A stretch of DNA of 64,000 nucleotides from Streptomyces sp. DT2A-34 (GTDB lineage: Bacteria > Actinomycetota > Actinomycetes > Streptomycetales > Streptomycetaceae): contig NZ_JASTWJ010000001.1 in assembly GCF_030499515.1 (NCBI RefSeq), forward strand, positions 3,266,001 to 3,330,000, given 5' to 3'. The notes beneath the pieces were generated by a model. It worked only from the letters and a program-made list of their open reading frames with translations, was not told the origin of the DNA and made no database searches. The position numbers and the translations under genes are program-made. Positions 10,477 to 18,297 of the stretch are shown in pieces (within the stretch, counting starts at the first letter, position 1; each line of letters begins with the position of its first letter).

Positions 10477-11655
10477 TCAGTAGACCGGCTTGTGCGGCTC
10501 GATCTGGTTGACCCAGCCGATCACGCCGCCACCGACGTGCACGGCGTCGGCGAAGCCCGCGGACTTCAGGACCGCGAGGACTTCCGCACTGCGGACACCC
10601 GTCTTGCAGTGCAAGACGATCTTCTTGTCCTGCGGGAGGTTCTCCAGAGCGGTGCCCATGAGGAACTCGTTCTTCGGGATCAGCGTGGCGCCGGGGATCG
10701 AGACGATCTCGTACTCGTTGATCTCGCGGACGTCGATGATCTCGATGTTCTCGCCGTCGTCGATCCACTCCTTGAGCTGCTTGGGAGTGATCGTCGAGCC
10801 GGCGGCAGCCTCCTGGGCCTCCTCGGAGACGACGCCGCAGAAGGCCTCGTAGTCGATGAGCTCGGTGACGGTCGGGTTCTCGCCGCAGACCGCGCAGTTC
10901 GGGTCCTTGCGGACCTTGACCTGGCGGTACTGCATCTCCAGGGCGTCGTAGATCATGAGTCGGCCGACCAGCGGCTCGCCGATGCCCGCGAGGAGCTTGA
11001 TGGCCTCGTTGACCTGGATGGAGCCGATGGACGCGCAGAGCACGCCCAGCACGCCGCCCTCGGCGCAGGAGGGGACCATGCCCGGCGGCGGGGGCTCCGG
11101 GTAGAGGCAGCGGTAGCAGGGGCCGTGCTCGGACCAGAAGACCGAGGCCTGGCCGTCGAAGCGGTAGATCGAGCCCCACACGTACGGCTTGTTCAGCAGC
11201 ACGCAGGCGTCGTTGACCAGGTAGCGGGTCGCGAAGTTGTCCGTGCCGTCGACGATCAGGTCGTACTGGCTGAAGATGTCCATCACGTTGTCGGCCTCGA
11301 GCCGCTCCTCGTGAAGGATCACGTTCACGTACGGGTTGATGCCGAGGACGGAGTCGCGGGCGGACTCGGCCTTGGAGCGGCCGATGTCGGCCTGGCTGTG
11401 GATGATCTGGCGCTGCAGGTTCGACTCGTCGACCTCGTCGAACTCCACGATTCCGAGCGTGCCGACGCCCGCGGCGGCCAGGTACATCAGCGCCGGCGAG
11501 CCCAGGCCGCCGGCGCCCACACACAGCACCTTGGCGTTCTTCAGCCGCTTCTGCCCGTCCATCCCCACGTCGGGGATGATCAGGTGGCGGGAGTACCTGC
11601 GGACCTCGTCTACGGTGAGCTCGGATGCGGGCTCGACCAGGGGTGGCAGCGACAC
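10477..11655 (-). CDS. moeZ: Adenylyltransferase/sulfurtransferase MoeZ (MoeB-rhodanese fusion)
   Basis: 392 aa. N-terminal ThiF/E1-like domain with nucleotide motif GAGGLGSPALMYLAAAG and two Zn Cys pairs (CYRC and CAVC), then a C-terminal rhodanese domain with active-site HCKTGVRS. It adenylates and then sulfurates the C-terminal GG of ubiquitin-like sulfur carriers (MoaD, CysO, ThiS-like) for molybdopterin, cysteine and thiocarboxylate-containing products. Start MSLPPL. A sigma-R-type promoter lies just upstream, which fits a sulfur-transfer enzyme controlled by disulfide stress. Confidence 0.93.
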   Translation of the reverse strand: MSLPPLVEPASELTVDEVRRYSRHLIIPDVGMDGQKRLKNAKVLCVGAGGLGSPALMYLAAAGVGTLGIVEFDEVDESNLQRQIIHSQADIGRSKAESARDSVLGINPYVNVILHEERLEADNVMDIFSQYDLIVDGTDNFATRYLVNDACVLLNKPYVWGSIYRFDGQASVFWSEHGPCYRCLYPEPPPPGMVPSCAEGGVLGVLCASIGSIQVNEAIKLLAGIGEPLVGRLMIYDALEMQYRQVKVRKDPNCAVCGENPTVTELIDYEAFCGVVSEEAQEAAAGSTITPKQLKEWIDDGENIEIIDVREINEYEIVSIPGATLIPKNEFLMGTALENLPQDKKIVLHCKTGVRSAEVLAVLKSAGFADAVHVGGGVIGWVNQIEPHKPVY

Positions 11656-11699
11656 GGGGACTCCGTTGGTCGGTCGATCACTACGGTTGTTCTCTCCGT

Positions 11700-11725
11700 A
11701 ACAGTGCCATGGGCTTTTTCATTCC
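11700..11725 (-). promoter_or_regulatory. Sigma-R-type promoter of moeZ
   Basis: On the minus strand GGAAT, then exactly 18 bases, then GTTAC, matching the Streptomyces sigma-R consensus GGAAT-N18-GTT. The predicted start of transcription is about 35-40 bases before the moeZ codon. The site sits in the 63-base gap after the upstream hydrolase gene and touches that gene's stop. Confidence 0.7.
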
Positions 11726-12522
11726 GAGACACCTGTTCCGATCCGCGAGACGATTTCGTCCCAGTAGCCGGGCATGGTCCCCCAGGCGTCGGTGCGGCCG
11801 CCGCGGTCGGTGCGGTCCGTGCGGTCGGTGAAGTAGATGGTCGCCGCGCCCTGCCAGCGGGCGATGCGCAGTGCCTCGTCCAGGTGGGGGCGGGGCACCC
11901 CGTGCACGAAGTGGCAGAAGCGGTCGGGCGGGTAGTCGGCGGTCCACTCCGCCACCTGCGACCAGCGGTAGTCGCTCCACGAGCCCCGGAAGGTGACCAA
12001 CTGGTCGGCGCACTCCGCGTAGCCCGGGTGGGGGTGGGTGCCGTGGCCGAGGACGATGTGGGCCTTGTCACGCAACGCGCGGAGTGTGGTGATCGTGCGG
12101 CGGATCTGGGACAGGGCGGCGCGTTCGGTCGGACAGCGGTCCAGGAAGAAGCCGTCGACCCGGTACCAGTCGAGGTAGCGGCGCGCCTCGGAGATCACCT
12201 CGCCGAAGGCGCGGGCGCCATCGGCCGTGTCGAAGTGCGCCGCTTCCGGGTGGACCGTGCCCAGGTGAGCGGTGTCGAGGTGGCCCAGGATGCGGACTCC
12301 CGCGTTGTGGAGTCTTCCGGCGGTCTCGAGGCAGTGCGGGTCGGGGCGGGTGCCGGGGCCGTCCGCGACGTTCAGGACCACCCAGTGCACGGGGGTGCCG
12401 GGGCGGGTGAGTTCGCCCCACTCGGTGGGGGCGAGGAGGGGATGTGCGTAGCCGGGGATGCCGAGGCCGGTGCGGAGGTGTGTGCTCGTGACAGTCGGTG
12501 GTGTGCCGGTCAGATACGGCAT
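11719..12522 (-). CDS. Spherulation-specific family 4 protein (spherulin-4 / GH135-like glycoside hydrolase)
   Basis: 267 aa, no obvious signal peptide. A TIM-barrel pattern typical of spherulin-4 proteins is visible: VHWVVLNVADGPG (strand 1), GVRILGHLDT (strand 2), WYRVDGFFLDRCP carrying the acidic residues of the active site, and late HIVLGHGTHPHP. Fungal Sph3, the best known relative, cleaves galactosaminogalactan, and the related GH114 fold acts on alpha-1,4-galactosamine polymers. It overlaps the epimerase gene by 13 bases and is the last gene of the polysaccharide group. Lack of an export signal is odd for a matrix hydrolase, so an intracellular or quality-control role is possible. Confidence 0.8.
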   Translation of the reverse strand: MPYLTGTPPTVTSTHLRTGLGIPGYAHPLLAPTEWGELTRPGTPVHWVVLNVADGPGTRPDPHCLETAGRLHNAGVRILGHLDTAHLGTVHPEAAHFDTADGARAFGEVISEARRYLDWYRVDGFFLDRCPTERAALSQIRRTITTLRALRDKAHIVLGHGTHPHPGYAECADQLVTFRGSWSDYRWSQVAEWTADYPPDRFCHFVHGVPRPHLDEALRIARWQGAATIYFTDRTDRTDRGGRTDAWGTMPGYWDEIVSRIGTGVSE

Positions 12523-13505
12523 GCCGCCTCCATCCAGATGTCACCCAGGGACTCTTCGAGGTTGATCCGGGGGCGCCAGCCGAGCCGGTCGCGTGCGGTG
12601 CGCACGTCGGCCTGCTGCCAGCTGCCGCAGCCGTCCGGGTACGGGTACGCGGCCGGGGCGCCGTGGCCCGCCTGCGTCGCATGGGCCGTGTGGGTCATGT
12701 GGTCCGAGTCGGCGCGGGGGTGGCCGATGGACGACCGCAACAGGCCGGGCGGGCCGTCGAGTTCGTGGAGGGCGCCGCCGTATCCGGCCACGCGGGCGAG
12801 GACGGCGGCGGCGTCCCGGAGGCGGACGGCCCGTCCCGAGCCGATGTTGATGACGCCCTGCGCTGCGGACAGCGAGGCGGCGTGGACGGCGCGGGCCACG
12901 TCGCGGACGTCGACGAAGTCGCGCTGCGCGCCGAGGCCGGTGAGTTTGAGCTCGCCGTCGCCGGACTGCATGGCGCGGCGCATGGCCTCGGCCAGGCGGC
13001 CGAGGGGGGAGCCGGCCGGGGTGCCGGGGCCCGCGGGTGAGAAGACGCGGAGAACCACGGCGTCCAGGCCGGAGCCCAGGACCAGTTCGGTGGCGGCGAG
13101 TTTGCTGACGCCGTACGGCCCTCCGGGGCGGGGGACGGCGTCCTCGGCCGTGGAGGAGCCGGGCTGGCTCGGGCCGTACTCGGCGCCGCAGCCGATCTGG
13201 ACGAGGCGGGCGCCGCAGCCGCTGCGGCGCAGGGCCTCGCAGACGGTGGCGACGGCGACGGTGTTGTGGCGGGTGAGTTCGCGGGCGCCGCCTCGGGTGG
13301 CGCCGGCGCAGTTGATGACGACGCCGGGGTGGACCGCGTCGAGGAAGCGGGTGAGGGCGCCGGGGCTGCCGGACGCGAGGTCGAAACGCACGTCGGCGTC
13401 GTCGCCTCGGCCCAGTGCGGTGAGTTGGACGGCGGGGTCGGCGAGGAGGCGGTCGGCTACGAAGCGGCCGAGGTAGCCGTTGGCTCCGATCAGCAGAACT
13501 CTCAT
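12510..13505 (-). CDS. NAD-dependent sugar-nucleotide epimerase/dehydratase
   Basis: 331 aa extended-SDR enzyme: GANGYLG dinucleotide loop at residues 7-13, YGVSK catalytic Tyr/Lys, RVFSPAGPG substrate loop and a C-terminal GWRPRINLEES typical of GalE/RmlB-like enzymes. An unusual His-rich insert (DHMTHTAHATQAGHG followed by PYPDG) lies near residues 275-300, where relatives have a short loop. With a PelF-like transferase and a galactosaminidase-type hydrolase beside it, a UDP-GlcNAc 4-epimerase role (PelX-like) is an inference; substrate not proven. Confidence 0.8.
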   Translation of the reverse strand: MRVLLIGANGYLGRFVADRLLADPAVQLTALGRGDDADVRFDLASGSPGALTRFLDAVHPGVVINCAGATRGGARELTRHNTVAVATVCEALRRSGCGARLVQIGCGAEYGPSQPGSSTAEDAVPRPGGPYGVSKLAATELVLGSGLDAVVLRVFSPAGPGTPAGSPLGRLAEAMRRAMQSGDGELKLTGLGAQRDFVDVRDVARAVHAASLSAAQGVINIGSGRAVRLRDAAAVLARVAGYGGALHELDGPPGLLRSSIGHPRADSDHMTHTAHATQAGHGAPAAYPYPDGCGSWQQADVRTARDRLGWRPRINLEESLGDIWMEAACRI

Positions 13506-13586
13506 CGGGCGGCTCCCGGGGCCGAGGCGTGGTCGGGTCGGGAGGTGATCATTTGGGGGTCTCCTTCACGGACAAGGACTTCAGGC

Positions 13587-13614
13587 AGAGGGGCTTTCAG
13601 AGAGGGGCTTTCAG
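13587..13614. repeat. Short tandem repeat between epimerase and membrane-protein genes
   Basis: Two perfect 14-base copies of AGAGGGGCTTTCAG, followed by a degenerate third. Nothing else convincing is seen in the 274-base gap. Confidence 0.5.
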
Positions 13615-13779
13615 ACAGAAGGGGTTCAGCGGGTTTCTGGGCGTGTATGCCTTCGGCAGCCCGTGCGGCTGAGTGGCGGTTCGCGTAGCTCCCACGGTTT
13701 CGTCGTGGGTCGGGGCCGCGCGGGAGGGTGCCCCCTACCCGCCGTACGCGGGTGCGGCACGTCGCTGATGCCTGTCGCG

Positions 13780-15045
13780 TCAGCATGGGTCGTCCGCCCG
13801 TGCGTGCGCCGACGCCCTCGTGAGGGTGCGGGTCGCGTGGAGCAGGAGGGTCAGGGCGCCCGTGCCGCAGGCGATGGTGGGGATGGCGGCCGGGCCCCAT
13901 GTGTCGATCAGGGACTGGACTGGGGTTGCCAGCCAGGCGCAGCCGGGGAGGCGGGCTGTGAAGAGGGCGGCCAGGGCCGTGGCCTCGGCTGTGACTGTGG
14001 CGGTGAGGACCAGTGCGGGGGCGTGGGTGAAACCGTGGGTGGTGAGGAGACGGGAGAGGAACAGGAAAGCGCCCAGGGTGAGGGTCTGGGGGTAGGCGGC
14101 GGGCTCGTCCAGGACCGTGGCGGTAACGGTCAGTAGGGCTGTCAGGGCGCCGAGGTAGAGGGCGAACGTGCCCAGGAGCAGGGGCTTCACGGAGGTGGCG
14201 AAGTCCTCCAGGGCTCGGCTGGCCGACAGCTTGCGGCGGGCTCGTACGGCAAGGAGGTGGGCGCACCATGCCGCGGGGGCGCAGGAGAGGGTGAGGGCCA
14301 GGAGGGGGGCGGTGGTGAGGGGCCAAGGACCCCCGGTGGTGCCGCTGGGGAGGGCGTCGGGGCCTCCGGTGGCGGCTGCCTGGAGAAGGCCGTCGCCGAG
14401 GAGGGCGTAGGCGAGGAGCCAGCAGGTGCGGGTGGCCGCCGGGTGTGTGGCCTGTGCGGCGGCGAGGGGGCCTCGGGCCAGTGCGGCGCGCAGGGCGAGG
14501 GTCACGGCGAGGGCTCCCGCGGCGGCCGCGATCAGGCGGGACTGCCCGTGGGTGAGGTGCAGGGCGGTCACGGCCGCCGCGCAGAGGGCTCCGGGGAGGA
14601 GGGTGAGGAGAATCCAGTCGGCTCGTGCGCGGGGGGCGGGGAAGGGCGGGGAGCTGGGGGGCGTTTCGCCGTCGCGGGCCACTCGGGCGTACATCTCCTC
14701 CGCGAGGGAGAAGACGTCCCGGTGCAGGAAGCGTGCCGCGGTGCGGTCGGTGATGCCGTGGGCTTCCAGGCCGGCGGCGATCTCCAGGGGGTCCACCGCG
14801 CGTTCGCAGAGGTCGCGGTGACGGTGCATCAGCGCCTTCACGGGGTCGGCGCCGGTGCGGCGGGTGGGAGTCGGCCGGGGGCCGGTGGGACGGGTGGCGG
14901 TTGGTTCCTGGCCGACGGTGGGTGGCGCGTCGGCTCCGCTCTCGCGTACGTCCGTCTCCGCCACGAGCCACTCCCCCGACCGCTCGTCCCAGGCCCCGGG
15001 GCTGGTCGGGGCCCCGGGACGGTCCAGGCCTCCCAGGCCGCTCAT
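13780..15045 (-). CDS. Multispan membrane protein of the polysaccharide group
   Basis: 421 aa. A soluble N-terminus (~1-130) contains a conserved-looking segment DPVKALMHRHRDLCERAVDPLEIAAGLEAHGITDRTAARFL (cut here only for orientation), followed by eight to nine hydrophobic segments. The start codon overlaps the stop of the glycosyltransferase by four bases (ATGA), so the two are translationally coupled. I do not recognise the family with certainty. Coupling to a PelF-like enzyme makes a PelG/Wzx-type transporter or polymer-export partner plausible, but no diagnostic motif was seen. Confidence 0.7.
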   Translation of the reverse strand: MSGLGGLDRPGAPTSPGAWDERSGEWLVAETDVRESGADAPPTVGQEPTATRPTGPRPTPTRRTGADPVKALMHRHRDLCERAVDPLEIAAGLEAHGITDRTAARFLHRDVFSLAEEMYARVARDGETPPSSPPFPAPRARADWILLTLLPGALCAAAVTALHLTHGQSRLIAAAAGALAVTLALRAALARGPLAAAQATHPAATRTCWLLAYALLGDGLLQAAATGGPDALPSGTTGGPWPLTTAPLLALTLSCAPAAWCAHLLAVRARRKLSASRALEDFATSVKPLLLGTFALYLGALTALLTVTATVLDEPAAYPQTLTLGAFLFLSRLLTTHGFTHAPALVLTATVTAEATALAALFTARLPGCAWLATPVQSLIDTWGPAAIPTIACGTGALTLLLHATRTLTRASAHARADDPC

Positions 15046-16802
15046 CGCGCCGCCTCCGTCGCGGGCAACGCGGTGGCGCGTACGGGGGCTCCCGTCGGGC
15101 GGCCGGGGCCGCCGCGGGCCACCAGGCGTGCGGATCGCTCGGTCCAGCGGCCGGGGACATGGGCCTCGGCGGGGACGGCGAAGGGCAGGGGGGCGCCGGC
15201 CTCGTCGAGGACGACGCGGCGGACCGGCGTACGCGAGACGATCTCCAGGTAAATGCCGTGAAATGCCGCGACGTTCTGCTCGACGGTGAACAGTTCGAGC
15301 GCCCGCGCGCGTGCCGCCGCGCCCAGGCGCTCACGGCGCTCGGGGTCGCGCAACAGCGCCACACAGGCCTCCGCGAGCGCCCGGGGGTTACGCGGTGGTA
15401 CGACGAGACCGGTGCCGCCGATGACCTCCACCACCGCGCCTACGTCCGTGGACACCGTCACGCGGCCGCAGAACATGGCCTCGACCAGACTGATGGGGAA
15501 GCCCTCGACGACGCTGGACAGGACGACCACGGCGCCCGCGGCGTACGCGTCGGCGAGCGTGGGGATCTCGGGGCCGCCGATCTCCTCGAAGGAGACCGGG
15601 TTGTCGCCGACGGTGTGCGGGCCCTCGGCCTCGTCGGGGAAGAGCTGCGCGGCGAGCGCCCTGCAGTGGCCGAGGTAGGCGTCGCCCTCGGGGCCCGCGG
15701 GGGAGCCGACGATCCGCAGCCGCGTCTTCGGTTCCTCCTTGCGGACCTCGGCGAAGGCGTGCAGCAACGACACCAGGTCCTTGGCGGGTTCGACACGGCC
15801 GACCCAGACCAGCGTGTCCGGGTCCGCGCACTCCTGGGCCTCGCCGACTTCGGCGAAGCGGGAGGCGTCCATGCCGGGGTAGACGGTGCGCAGCTTCGCG
15901 CGGTCGGCGCCGCAGCGCTCCTGCCAGCGGCGGGCGTGGGCGTTGCCGGGTGTGACGAGGGCGGCCCGGGCGTAGGTCTCGGCGGCGAGCCTGCCGTGGA
16001 AGGCGGCGAGCAGCGACCGTACGGCGGGCGAGGACTCGGTGGCGGCCAGGTAGTGCGTGCGGAGCCGTACCCCGTACTCGGTCAGCAGCAGCGGTACGCC
16101 GCAGAAGTGCTGGGCGAGCAGGCCGGTCAGGGCCGCCGAGCCGCCGGAGGCGGCGTGACACAGGTCGGCCGAGCCCAGGTCGTCGTCCTCGTACCAGTCG
16201 AGCGAGAGGGGGCGCAGGGCGCGTTCCAGCTGCGCGGCGAAGGCCAGCAGATCGGGTACGCGCGCCTCACGCGCCGGGCGCAGGGCGCCCCGCGCCCTGC
16301 AGGCGCGCTCAAGGGCGCGTACGGCGGACTCGGAGCGGAGCGCTCCCACCAGTCCGCCCTCGTCACGGGCGAGTTCGGCGAGCCCGTACAGCGCGTTGCC
16401 GAAACGGTCCGCCTCAGTGGCCGACGTGTCCTCGGAGGCTCCGGAAGGGCCCCCGGTCCCCCCTGCGCAGAGCACGGCCACCAACTCGCCGTAGCACTCG
16501 GCGAACCGCCGGCGCGCACGGCGCCCATACGCCCACCCGTCGCCCGCCACCGCCCTTCCAACGGGTCCCTTCGGGCCGCCCCTCCCATAGTCATCCTCGC
16601 CCGCCCACAGCGGCGCCGTACGCACGCGGCTGACCTGCGGTGGCAGCGGGACCCAGCCCTCGTCCTCCTGGCGCTCGCTGCGGCTGAGCGCGTAGATGTC
16701 GAACTCGTGCTGTCCGAGCCCGCGCACGAGCCGGTCGCACCAGAGCCTGGCGTCACCGTCCACATACGGATAGCCGCCCTCCGCGATCAGTGCGATGCGC
16801 AC
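15042..16802 (-). CDS. DUF3492 (PelF-like) family 4 glycosyltransferase
   Basis: About 586 aa. Starts VRIALIAEGGYPYV with the N-terminal DUF3492 region of PelF-type enzymes, then a GT-B C-terminal half: VWVGRVEPAKDL, donor site ADAYAAGAVVVLSSVVEGFPISLVEA and GAVVEVIGG. PelF uses a UDP-hexosamine to build the Pel polymer. The GTG at 16802 follows GGGGGTG; the longer ATG at 16835 is possible. It is the first gene of a four-gene run on this strand, with about 190 non-coding bases upstream. Confidence 0.85.
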   Translation of the reverse strand: MRIALIAEGGYPYVDGDARLWCDRLVRGLGQHEFDIYALSRSERQEDEGWVPLPPQVSRVRTAPLWAGEDDYGRGGPKGPVGRAVAGDGWAYGRRARRRFAECYGELVAVLCAGGTGGPSGASEDTSATEADRFGNALYGLAELARDEGGLVGALRSESAVRALERACRARGALRPAREARVPDLLAFAAQLERALRPLSLDWYEDDDLGSADLCHAASGGSAALTGLLAQHFCGVPLLLTEYGVRLRTHYLAATESSPAVRSLLAAFHGRLAAETYARAALVTPGNAHARRWQERCGADRAKLRTVYPGMDASRFAEVGEAQECADPDTLVWVGRVEPAKDLVSLLHAFAEVRKEEPKTRLRIVGSPAGPEGDAYLGHCRALAAQLFPDEAEGPHTVGDNPVSFEEIGGPEIPTLADAYAAGAVVVLSSVVEGFPISLVEAMFCGRVTVSTDVGAVVEVIGGTGLVVPPRNPRALAEACVALLRDPERRERLGAAARARALELFTVEQNVAAFHGIYLEIVSRTPVRRVVLDEAGAPLPFAVPAEAHVPGRWTERSARLVARGGPGRPTGAPVRATALPATEAAR

Positions 16803-16991
16803 GAGTACACCCCCGATCTCCCTAAGGGGAGCCACCGTTCCTCCGGCGGCTCACAGCGGGACGAACGTATGCGGACAAGCCGGTGGCCCGATGGACGGTT
16901 GTCCATCGCGCCACCAAAAGGGGTGAACGGTCGTAACTTTCCCGTGCAGGTCGCGTTCCGTCGCGCTAAGAGATCAAACGCCTACGGATCG

Positions 16992-17253
16992 TCACACCAT
17001 GGCCAACTCCCGTCGCGCGGCCCGCCGCTGGGCCGCGATCAGCGGATCGAGTGCCGGTACGGCGGCCAGGAGTTGCTTGGCGCATGGGTCCTGCGGGTTG
17101 TCGTACACCTCGTCGGCGGGGCCTTCCTCGACGATCCGCCCGCGCCGCATCACCGCGACCCGGTCGCTGACCTGGCGTACGACGGTGAGGTCGTGCGCGA
17201 CGAAGACGAGCGCGAGGCCGAGTTCGCGCTGCAACTCGCCGAGCAGGGCGACC
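16992..17253 (-). pseudogene. Remnant of a peptide/nickel ABC transporter ATP-binding protein (DppD/OppD type)
   Basis: Only the C-terminal ~87 residues survive: LLGELQRELGLALVFVAHD (H-loop), DRVAVMRRGRIVEEG and the oligopeptide-type tail DPLIAAQRRAARRELAMV. Walker A, the signature motif and Walker B are missing. Similarity begins abruptly near 17253, where unrelated sequence is joined, so a deletion removed the first two thirds. The fragment cannot form an ATPase. Confidence 0.85.
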
Positions 17254-18047
17254 ATTGACCACGGACGCGATCCGTGTCGCCGCCCGGGATGCGAAAGCGG
17301 ACGACCAGCGCGCCCAAGACCGTTCGGGGCGTGCCAGTGCGCGGGCTCACTTCCGCTCACCGCTTAGGAACGGTGACGTGGAAGACGACGCAGGTCGTCA
17401 CCGCCCCAGGACGGCGTCGGCGGTTCTACGTTCACCCGGCGCGGAAGGACAGCGCCGCCTCGACGGTGATGTTCGTCGGTACAAGAATCGCGGCGAAGGT
17501 GATGACGGGCGCGGCGAGTCCGGGAAGCAGCTCCCGGCGGGCGATCCGGAACATGCCCCACCCGCTGAGCCGGTCGGCGGCGACGTAGTCGAGCTCCTTG
17601 AGGGTGAGCGTCTGCGCGCACACCATCTTGGCGAGCGTGCCCCAGCCGCAGACCAGCCCGACGACCAGCGCCACCAGGACGGGGCGCGGGAAGCTCGTGG
17701 GCACGATGGCGAGCAGCGCGAGCGCGACGACCATCAGCGGCATGGCCACGAAGATGTCGGCGATCCGGGTCAGGACGAGGTCCACCCAGCGGTTGCCGAG
17801 CCCGGCCGCGACGCCGATGACGACGCCCAGTACGAGCTGCACGACCGTCGCCGCCAGCGCGACCCCGAGCGACACGCGCGTGCCGTGGACCAGCCGCGCG
17901 AACAGGTCCCGGCCGGCCTGCGGTTCGACGCCGAGCCAGTCATCGGCGCTCACTCCCCCGAACGACCCGATCGGCACGCCTCCGCGCGGCGAGCGCGACC
18001 AGGACGAGCAGCGCGACGACGACCGCCATGACGGACGGTTGGCGCAT
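17254..18047 (-). pseudogene. Remnant of a DppC-type ABC permease with frameshifts and an internal gap
   Basis: An ATG at 18047 with ribosome site GAGAGG starts MRQPSVMAVVVALLVLVAL (first membrane segment). The reading frame is then lost near 17990, and the rest (SFGGVSADDWLGVEPQ, permease loop GWGTLAKMVCAQTLTLKELDYVAA, then PTNITVEAALSF) continues in another frame. A second frame change follows near 17430, with the conserved PPTPSWG in yet another frame before a stop. About 20-30 residues normally found after TM1 also seem to be missing. Same transcriptional direction as the ATPase remnant, consistent with one decayed operon. Confidence 0.85.
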
Positions 18048-18168
18048 CGGAGACGACCTCTCGAAATGATGAATCTCGAATAGCGAGACAGTTTGACGAG
18101 AAGTGAGACGGAAATGGGCAGACATCTGCCCCCGCGCCGGATCGCCACGCGAACGCGAGGGGCGGGCG

Positions 18169-18261
18169 TCAGGGACAGTGGACGTCGGCCACGCACAGTG
18201 CGGTCACACCGATGAGCGCCAGCTCGATGGCGGCGCAAGAGGAGGCGTGACGGGTCGACAT
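18169..18261 (-). CDS. 30-residue Cys-containing leader peptide
   Basis: ATG to TGA, 30 codons, beginning MSTRHASSCAAIEL and ending LCVADVHCP, with Cys codons at positions 9, 23 and 29. Short peptides of this form occur in Streptomyces ahead of transporter and sulfur genes. They resemble the Cys-rich attenuator peptides described in mycobacteria, where ribosome pausing at Cys codons controls the downstream operon. Here it stands in front of the decayed dpp-like permease. No strong Shine-Dalgarno is present and the promoter spacing suggests leaderless translation. Confidence 0.65.
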   Translation of the reverse strand: MSTRHASSCAAIELALIGVTALCVADVHCP

Positions 18262-18268
18262 GCGCAGA

Positions 18269-18297
18269 TATATGTATGAACTCGCTGCACATGCCAA
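18269..18297 (-). promoter_or_regulatory. Candidate promoter of the leader peptide
   Basis: Minus strand TTGGCA, 17 bases, CATATA, with the ATG of the leader peptide eight bases after the -10 element. This spacing places the RNA start at or next to the start codon. Confidence 0.5.

What the first reader, a model, noticed from the sequence alone, without database searches (positions are those of the whole stretch)
11719..16802. Compact Pel-like exopolysaccharide locus ending in a spherulin-4 hydrolase
Seen: a DUF3492/PelF-like glycosyltransferase coupled by an ATGA overlap to a multispan membrane protein, followed by a sugar-nucleotide epimerase whose gene overlaps a spherulin-4 (GH135-like) hydrolase. 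Known: PelF uses a UDP-hexosamine, PelX-type epimerases make UDP-GalNAc, and GH135/GH114 enzymes cut galactosamine polymers. Inferred: the four genes make and trim a GalNAc-type polymer. No PelD, PelE or deacetylase is present, so this would be a reduced system in which the 421-aa protein replaces PelG or PelE.
Basis: partly seen in the sequence, partly recalled or inferred. Interest (0 to 1): 0.7.

Follow-up and report, generated by a model that had tools for sequence, protein, structure and literature searches.

The report
Dismantled Pel-like sugar operon in Streptomyces
In 94 of 101 sampled Streptomyces genomes four linked genes look like the stripped-down remains of a sugar-polymer factory: a relative in the same family carries the fuller set near the same neighbour gene, and the hydrolase here lacks the acid residue that its relatives cut with, so it likely binds sugar instead of trimming it.

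Summary
The four genes, the ATGA coupling and the overlap are real. The locus is near-universal in the sampled genus: 94 of 101 genomes have it, and in 90 of 90 loci where transferase, SDR and moeZ were found the order GT>MEM>EPI>SPH>moeZ is kept. It is a reduced paralogue of GAG/Pel-like clusters (deacetylase-like, PelF, MEM, often dehydratase-NTase-SDR, spherulin-4, GH114), one of which lies 4.2 Mb away. One relative (L153) carries the fuller set near moeZ; Wenjunlia tyrosinilytica (L154) has the four-gene set with hydrolase and SDR catalytic residues intact. In the window type the spherulin protein has lost the GH135 acid/base Glu (kept in 0 of 87; 28 of 28 in the paralogous clusters), the SDR has Cys for the catalytic Ser (91 of 91), and the transferase has lost PelF donor-loop residues. 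Selection is still purifying, strongest on the SDR (dN/dS 0.06-0.10). The core of an inverted repeat, single-copy in this genome, lies upstream in 87 of 91 loci. 'Makes and trims a GalNAc polymer' is not supported; a repurposed, probably developmentally induced envelope-glycan module with a non-cutting hydrolase-fold partner fits better. The product is unknown.

The parts
15042..16802 (-). GT: PelF-type GT4 glycosyltransferase with DUF3492 domain (possible alternative start 16835); GG donor loop changed to G-D, TEHG to TEYG, NG to PG; EX7E kept
13780..15045 (-). MEM: 421-aa multispan membrane protein with a conserved N-terminal motif (residues about 67-124), ATGA-coupled to GT; no known family
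12510..13505 (-). EPI: extended SDR (reductase/epimerase type), most constrained of the four; Cys106 at the catalytic Ser position, YxxxK kept
11719..12522 (-). SPH: spherulin-4 (PF12138, GH135-type) protein without the acid/base Glu (Arg179 here); no signal peptide evident by eye
10477..11655 (-). moeZ-type ThiF-rhodanese gene, constant downstream neighbour (63-bp gap here and in the commonest case)
16882..16915 (-). 34-bp inverted repeat (core GGACAACCGTCC) about 100 bp upstream of the GT start; only match in the genome at up to 3 mismatches; predicted operator or leader hairpin

Best explanation
The four genes are likely the repurposed remains of a fuller galactosaminogalactan/Pel-like cluster that was dismantled step by step near moeZ, and in Streptomyces they would work as a developmentally induced envelope-glycan module whose hydrolase-fold protein is predicted to bind sugar and not cut it. 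Shown: shared order and homology with the paralogous clusters; a fuller set near moeZ in one relative (L153); a four-gene set with intact hydrolase and SDR residues in another (L154); no GH135 acid/base Glu in any of 87 sequences of the window type; Ser-to-Cys in the SDR; purifying selection on all four genes. Inferred: the altered transferase (EX7E, Arg and Lys mostly kept) still moves a sugar, but with a changed donor or acceptor, onto a membrane acceptor handled by MEM; the SDR supplies or binds the sugar nucleotide; SPH holds the glycan; no long deacetylated GalN polymer is made here, because deacetylase, GH114, dehydratase and nucleotidyltransferase are missing from the locus. Expression rises in differentiating mycelium if the inferred mapping to SCO5174-SCO5177 is right.
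For: Synteny 90 of 90. Paralogous clusters (28 examined of 59 DUF3492 hits over 150 bits): GT loop residues, Arg, Lys and EX7E kept in 28 of 28, SPH Asp and Glu in 28 of 28, EPI Ser in 23 of 23. Window type: SPH Glu 0 of 87, EPI Cys 91 of 91, GT second Gly to E/D in 86 of 90, N309 to P in 90 of 90. L153: deacetylase-like piece, PelF with intact motifs, MEM, dehydratase, NTase, EPI (Ser), SPH (Asp, Glu), GH114, one predicted gene on the other strand, moeZ. L154: GT-MEM-EPI(Ser)-SPH(Asp, Glu)-moeZ without deacetylase, dehydratase, NTase or GH114 match. Trees place the EPI and SPH of L153 with the moeZ-site clade (L154 was not in them). dN/dS of six window pairs: EPI 0.06-0.10, SPH 0.21-0.31, GT 0.22-0.30, MEM 0.33-0.43. 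PMC3610822 table passage: SCO5174 'Transferase', SCO5175 and SCO5177 up log2 2.2-3.8 in second mycelium; PMC6585502 passages: SCO5174 mutants make less actinorhodin and are classed with cell-envelope genes; PMC4340878 passage: SCO5178 = moeB.
Against: E441 of EX7E is kept in 90 of 90 and E433 in 83 of 90 GTs of the genus, so a normal transferase is possible. Cys can sometimes stand in for Ser in an SDR (recalled). Only one genome (L153) shows the fuller set near moeZ, its deacetylase-like gene was seen only in its last part, and EPI support next to L153 is weak (0.155); the GT tree puts L153 with the paralogous-cluster GTs. In W. vitaminophila (L145/L178) and L140 EPI and moeZ were found but not GT, MEM or SPH, and in six of 17 other-genus GTs the aligned catalytic residues are gone, so a working transferase is not needed everywhere. 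Structure predictions failed (SPH pLDDT 38, MEM 51). The SCO mapping is inferred from order, not from sequence. The 'Agd3-like' label has no HMM or PDB support.
Confidence: 0.55

Rival explanations
1. One reading: a compact Pel system in which PelF polymerises UDP-GalNAc made by the epimerase, MEM exports it and SPH trims it.
For: PelF equivalog cut-off passed (104.9 vs 100); EX7E mostly kept; Pfam spherulin-4; the set resembles reduced forms of such clusters.
Against: SPH acid/base absent in 87 of 87; EPI Ser replaced in 91 of 91; donor-loop glycine replaced by E/D in 86 of 90 GTs; deacetylase and GH114 not at the locus; best solved relative of EPI is a 4-ketoreductase; MEM matches no exporter family.
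Confidence: 0.1
2. Sensor or regulator: the proteins no longer make a glycan. EPI binds NAD(P) and a sugar nucleotide and, with GT-, MEM- and SPH-derived partners at the membrane, reports sugar-nucleotide supply to development and secondary metabolism.
For: EPI is the core: lowest dN/dS of the four, found with the inverted-repeat core where GT, MEM and SPH were not found (L140, L145); aligned GT catalytic residues lost in six of 17 other-genus GTs, and 7 of 90 GTs of the genus lack the first EX7E Glu (Asp in 4 of them); mutant phenotype on actinorhodin (mapping inferred).
Against: Tyr and Lys of EPI are invariant (91 of 91) and EPI has Ser in 10 of 21 other-genus loci, which points to catalysis at least there; no sensing partner is known.
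Confidence: 0.25
3. SPH is still a hydrolase that uses other residues (changed substrate or mechanism), so the locus is an active but different glycan system.
For: Asp128 remains in 63 of 87; many residues are invariant in this type but not in the paralogous clusters (for example W47, W187, Q224, D236, W254, D255).
Against: Asp is not seen in 24 of 87 and no carboxylate replaces Glu in the 87; elsewhere Asp at that site was seen only in L149/L176, apparently one genome.
Confidence: 0.12
4. Non-functional relic drifting to loss.
For: Active-site residues lost in three of the genes; SPH not found in 5 of 90 loci; higher dN/dS for GT, MEM and SPH among L093/L101/L102/L104.
Against: 94 of 101 genomes keep it; EPI dN/dS 0.06-0.10; the inverted-repeat core is found upstream in 87 of 91.
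Confidence: 0.05

Closest known systems
Bacterial agd3/GAG-like operons, some of them in Actinobacteria (Bamford et al. 2020, PMC7229062; passages seen)
   Same: GT4-type transferase plus multispan membrane protein, spherulin-4 in some; the paralogous locus L003 fits this description
   Different: The window set lacks the deacetylase and GH114, has an SDR, and its hydrolase and SDR active sites are changed
Gram-positive Pel, pelDEADAFG (Whitfield et al. 2020, PMC7112168; passages seen)
   Same: PelF-type transferase; that paper also reports inactive-looking epimerase domains fused to PelD in several Gram-positives
   Different: No PelD, PelE, PelA or PelG found in the neighbourhood; a separate SDR
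Aspergillus GAG cluster (Sph3/GH135, Ega3/GH114, Agd3, Uge3, Gtb3; names partly recalled, partly from passages of PMC7229062 and PMC12054363)
   Same: Spherulin-4 protein, sugar-nucleotide SDR and transferase together
   Different: Sph3 uses Asp166/Glu222; the window protein has Asp128 and Arg179

Membership tests
PelF (NF038011) | Score above the curated cut-off | tested here: met
   104.9 vs 100 bits; paralogue in L003 169.7, L153 161.0
PelF (NF038011) | GG donor loop, TEHG and NG motifs as in the paralogous-cluster PelFs (motif meaning recalled) | tested here: not met
   G17 to E/D in 86 of 90, H243 to Y in 76 of 90, N309 to P in 90 of 90; 28 of 28 kept in the paralogous clusters
GH135 (Sph3) | Spherulin-4 sequence family | tested here: met
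   PF12138 82.9 bits; 5c5g/5d6t found at E about 0.001
GH135 (Sph3) | Nucleophile Asp and acid/base Glu | tested here: not met
   Glu 0 of 87, Asp 63 of 87; the window has Asp128, Arg179
UDP-glucose/GlcNAc 4-epimerase (GalE type) | Equivalog score | tested here: not met
   TIGR01179 30 bits vs cut-off 262.3
UDP-glucose/GlcNAc 4-epimerase (GalE type) | Ser/Thr-Tyr-Lys triad (recalled) | tested here: not met
   Cys106 in 91 of 91; Tyr and Lys kept
Pel locus | PelD, PelE, PelA deacetylase, PelG beside PelF | tested here: not met
   Neighbours scanned are TAP-lipase, moeZ and DUF3152; MEM has no PelG or transporter match. PelD, PelE and PelG were not sought elsewhere in the genome
GAG-type cluster | Deacetylase and GH114 with PelF-type GT | tested here: not met
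   Not at the window locus; present in L003 and L153; the deacetylase label is by resemblance only
Wzx/MATE-type exporter (MEM) | Fold | tested here: inconclusive
   AlphaFold model pLDDT 51, not searched

The most novel reading that the evidence does not exclude
A whole exopolysaccharide-synthesis operon has been turned, in place and in ordered steps, into a largely non-catalytic protein assembly that nearly all Streptomyces keep. An SDR with an active-site Cys, regulated through a unique leader hairpin next to moeZ, would be its core, and the transferase and hydrolase folds would serve as sugar-binding partners that tie envelope sugar supply, and perhaps sulfur or redox state, to development and antibiotic production.
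Probability: 0.2. Interest if true: 0.85.

Novelty: new variant of a known kind. Interest (0 to 1): 0.6.

Why it matters
It replaces a plausible reading (a trimming hydrolase) that fails its test, for genes present in 94 of 101 sampled genomes of the genus and named 'spherulation-specific family 4' in many records. It also gives a natural series (fuller cluster, reduced set with key residues kept, reduced set with residues lost, SDR alone) at one chromosomal site, which makes pseudoenzyme repurposing testable with simple knockouts in S. coelicolor.

Tried and rejected
Structure prediction of SPH (A3, 32 rows) and MEM (A2, 37 rows) gave pLDDT 38 and 51; no fold search was run on them. Rfam found nothing in 16600-17100. 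SCO5179-SCO5183 was a wrong guess for the S. coelicolor genes: the two papers found name SCO5183 a helicase. phmmer and a six-row profile of the deacetylase-like protein found no PDB relative, so 'Agd3-like' stays a resemblance; a few relatives are named polysaccharide deacetylase or NodB-homology by their sources. The PF12138 search missed the window's own SPH gene, so its 72 of 101 is a lower bound and was not used. I considered and dropped: chance adjacency (synteny), plain decay (dN/dS), and MEM = PelG. Papers: searches found none; the listings of 10 (20 of 40), (20 of 47; 12 of 4,037, mostly unrelated) and the SCO-tag searches showed no paper on this locus as such; only open-licence papers are held.
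Full report
Observation. The four minus-strand ORFs, the ATGA overlap of GT and MEM and the 13-bp overlap of EPI and SPH are present. Families: GT = DUF3492 plus GT4, NCBIfam PelF just above its cut-off; SPH = PF12138; EPI = extended SDR; MEM = none.

Conservation. Of 101 genomes of the genus (window's included), the MEM search hit 96; two of these (G001, G058) have only weak hits at paralogous loci. I fetched the other 93 loci and added the window (94). This is a lower bound: G099, without a MEM hit, has a window-like DUF3492 hit. GT, EPI and moeZ were all found in 90. Of the other four, three are cut by a contig end (L096, L105, L106), and L098, a 4.3-kb contig, shows only MEM, with no EPI in about 3 kb downstream. 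In 90 of 90 the order and strand are GT>MEM>EPI>SPH>moeZ for the genes found; all five were found in 82, and SPH was not found in 5. In a sample of 61 genomes of the family, an EPI homologue (313 bits or more) occurs in 54, 15 of 17 genera; in the 20 of these loci from other genera that I fetched, moeZ lies next to it or close by in 20. In a class sample of 296 genomes, 28 hits were in this genus, the only one of the family drawn, and two others were 46% identical (most genomes had only seven candidates scored).

Paralogues. The same genome has a second locus at 7.49 Mb (L003): deacetylase-like, PelF, MEM-like, spherulin-4, GH114. I examined 28 of the 59 DUF3492 hits over 150 bits: PelF-type, MEM-like and spherulin-4 genes in 28, the deacetylase-like gene in 27, GH114 in 17; 23 also carry a dehydratase, a nucleotidyltransferase and an SDR homologous to EPI between MEM and SPH. 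So the window set is PelF-MEM-SDR-spherulin without deacetylase, dehydratase, nucleotidyltransferase and GH114. The dehydratase tested (L153) is LegB-like (450.6 bits, cut-off 475), which suggests that EPI began as a 4-ketoreductase of a 6-deoxy-amino-sugar nucleotide (inference).

Active sites. Sph3 uses Glu222 as acid/base, and the D166A variant is inactive (passages of PMC12054363, and PMC8546845; the former prints Asp196, apparently a slip, since the Asp-to-Glu spacing in the alignment is 56). In 87 window-type SPH sequences the Glu is Ser 45, Arg 16, Ala 15, Gln 4, Thr 3, Cys 3, Tyr 1; Asp remains in 63. In the paralogous clusters Asp and Glu are kept in 28 of 28. EPI: position 106 is Cys in 91 of 91, Ser in 23 of 23 paralogous SDRs; Tyr131 and Lys135 are invariant. 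GT: the donor-loop glycine is E/D in 86 of 90, the TEHG His is changed in 77 of 90 and the NG Asn in 90 of 90, while E433 of EX7E is kept in 83 of 90 and E441 in 90 of 90; 28 of 28 paralogous GTs keep all. The meanings of SDR and GT4 motifs are recalled.

Evolutionary series. L153 (unnamed genus g15): end of a deacetylase-like gene (the fetched stretch starts inside it), PelF with intact motifs, MEM, dehydratase, nucleotidyltransferase, EPI (Ser), SPH (Asp, Glu), GH114, then one predicted gene on the other strand, then moeZ. L154 (Wenjunlia tyrosinilytica): GT, MEM, EPI (Ser), SPH (Asp, Glu), moeZ, with GT loop motifs already altered. L145/L178 (W. vitaminophila): EPI (Ser) and moeZ, no GT, MEM or SPH found. 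L146, L147, L148, L150, L151, L152: EPI (Ser), no SPH found; in one automatic alignment the GT positions of Arg336 and Glu433 are changed in six of six, Lys341 in six (Arg in two) and Glu441 in five. L134-L144 and the genus itself: EPI Cys. Among 27 named loci (several the same genomes), EPI is Ser in three and Cys in 24; SPH was found in 24, with Glu in one and Asp in one. Trees (FastTree, midpoint root, L154 not included): EPI and SPH of L153 fall with the moeZ-site clade (0.91 and 0.995; support inside the EPI clade next to L153 is 0.155); the GT of L153 falls with the paralogous-cluster GTs (1.0).

Selection. Six close pairs: dN/dS EPI 0.06-0.10, moeZ 0.02-0.18, SPH 0.21-0.31, GT 0.22-0.30, MEM 0.33-0.43. 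Three pairs among L093, L101, L102 and L104, where GT motifs are degraded: GT 0.49-0.58, MEM 0.54-0.70, SPH 0.38-0.62, EPI 0.07-0.10, moeZ 0.09-0.14.

Upstream element. The core GGACAACCGTCC of a 34-bp inverted repeat lies within 450 bp upstream of GT in 87 of 91 loci of the genus (two of the four misses, L026 and L034, are in poor sequence there), in 9 of 16 other-genus loci with GT, and in 0 of 28 paralogous clusters. The degenerate 34-bp pattern occurs once in the own genome at up to 3 mismatches, the reversed control never. In L140 and L145, where GT was not found, the core lies upstream of EPI. The outer stem is imperfect in many copies. On 47 distinct copies the pairing shows 26 cells with double changes against a shuffled mean of 11.3 (0 of 500 reach it; related sequences inflate this), and slid versions pair far less. 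Sense-strand G-U pairs outnumber A-C mismatches 54 to 19 on distinct copies, which leans towards an RNA hairpin. The window copy folds only mildly better than shuffles (z -1.83). Rfam: nothing.

Phenotype in print. By order, SCO5174 (Transferase), SCO5175, SCO5176, SCO5177 and SCO5178 (moeB) should be GT, MEM, EPI, SPH and moeZ (inferred). PMC3610822 (table passage and legend): log2 changes of 2.2/3.5/3.5, 2.4/3.8/3.5 and 2.6/3.3/3 for SCO5174, 5175 and 5177 at 24, 48 and 72 h against first mycelium. PMC6585502 (passages; supplements not seen): SCO5174 mutants produce less actinorhodin; the authors expect about a quarter of their mutants to be false positives.

Verdict. A conserved, repurposed remnant of a Pel/GAG-like cluster is the best reading; the trimming and GalNAc-epimerase claims fail the tests made here; the product is open.

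Noticed in passing
window 16993-18292, minus strand: Pieces of an oligopeptide-type ABC transporter (ATPase C-terminal end, truncated permease) lie between the GT gene and the DUF3152 gene; judged by eye from translations. They look like a decaying insertion.
   Followed up: no
window 16882-16915: Conserved 34-bp inverted repeat, single match in the genome, its core found even where only the SDR gene remains.
   Followed up: partly
L003 (G000:C1:7483000-7501000): A deacetylase-like/PelF/MEM/spherulin-4/GH114 cluster in the same genome, the more likely true exopolysaccharide locus.
   Followed up: partly
L109-L112, L114-L131, L133: Long paralogous clusters carry a dehydratase (LegB-like in L153), a nucleotidyltransferase and an SDR, which hints at a 6-deoxy-amino-sugar in the product.
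   Followed up: partly
L146, L147, L148, L150, L151, L152: GT-like genes at the moeZ site in which the aligned catalytic Arg and first Glu are lost.
   Followed up: no
window 11656-11718: The SPH-moeZ gap is 63 bp in 49 loci, and parts of it look well conserved in the 14 copies printed; a moeZ promoter may lie there.
   Followed up: no
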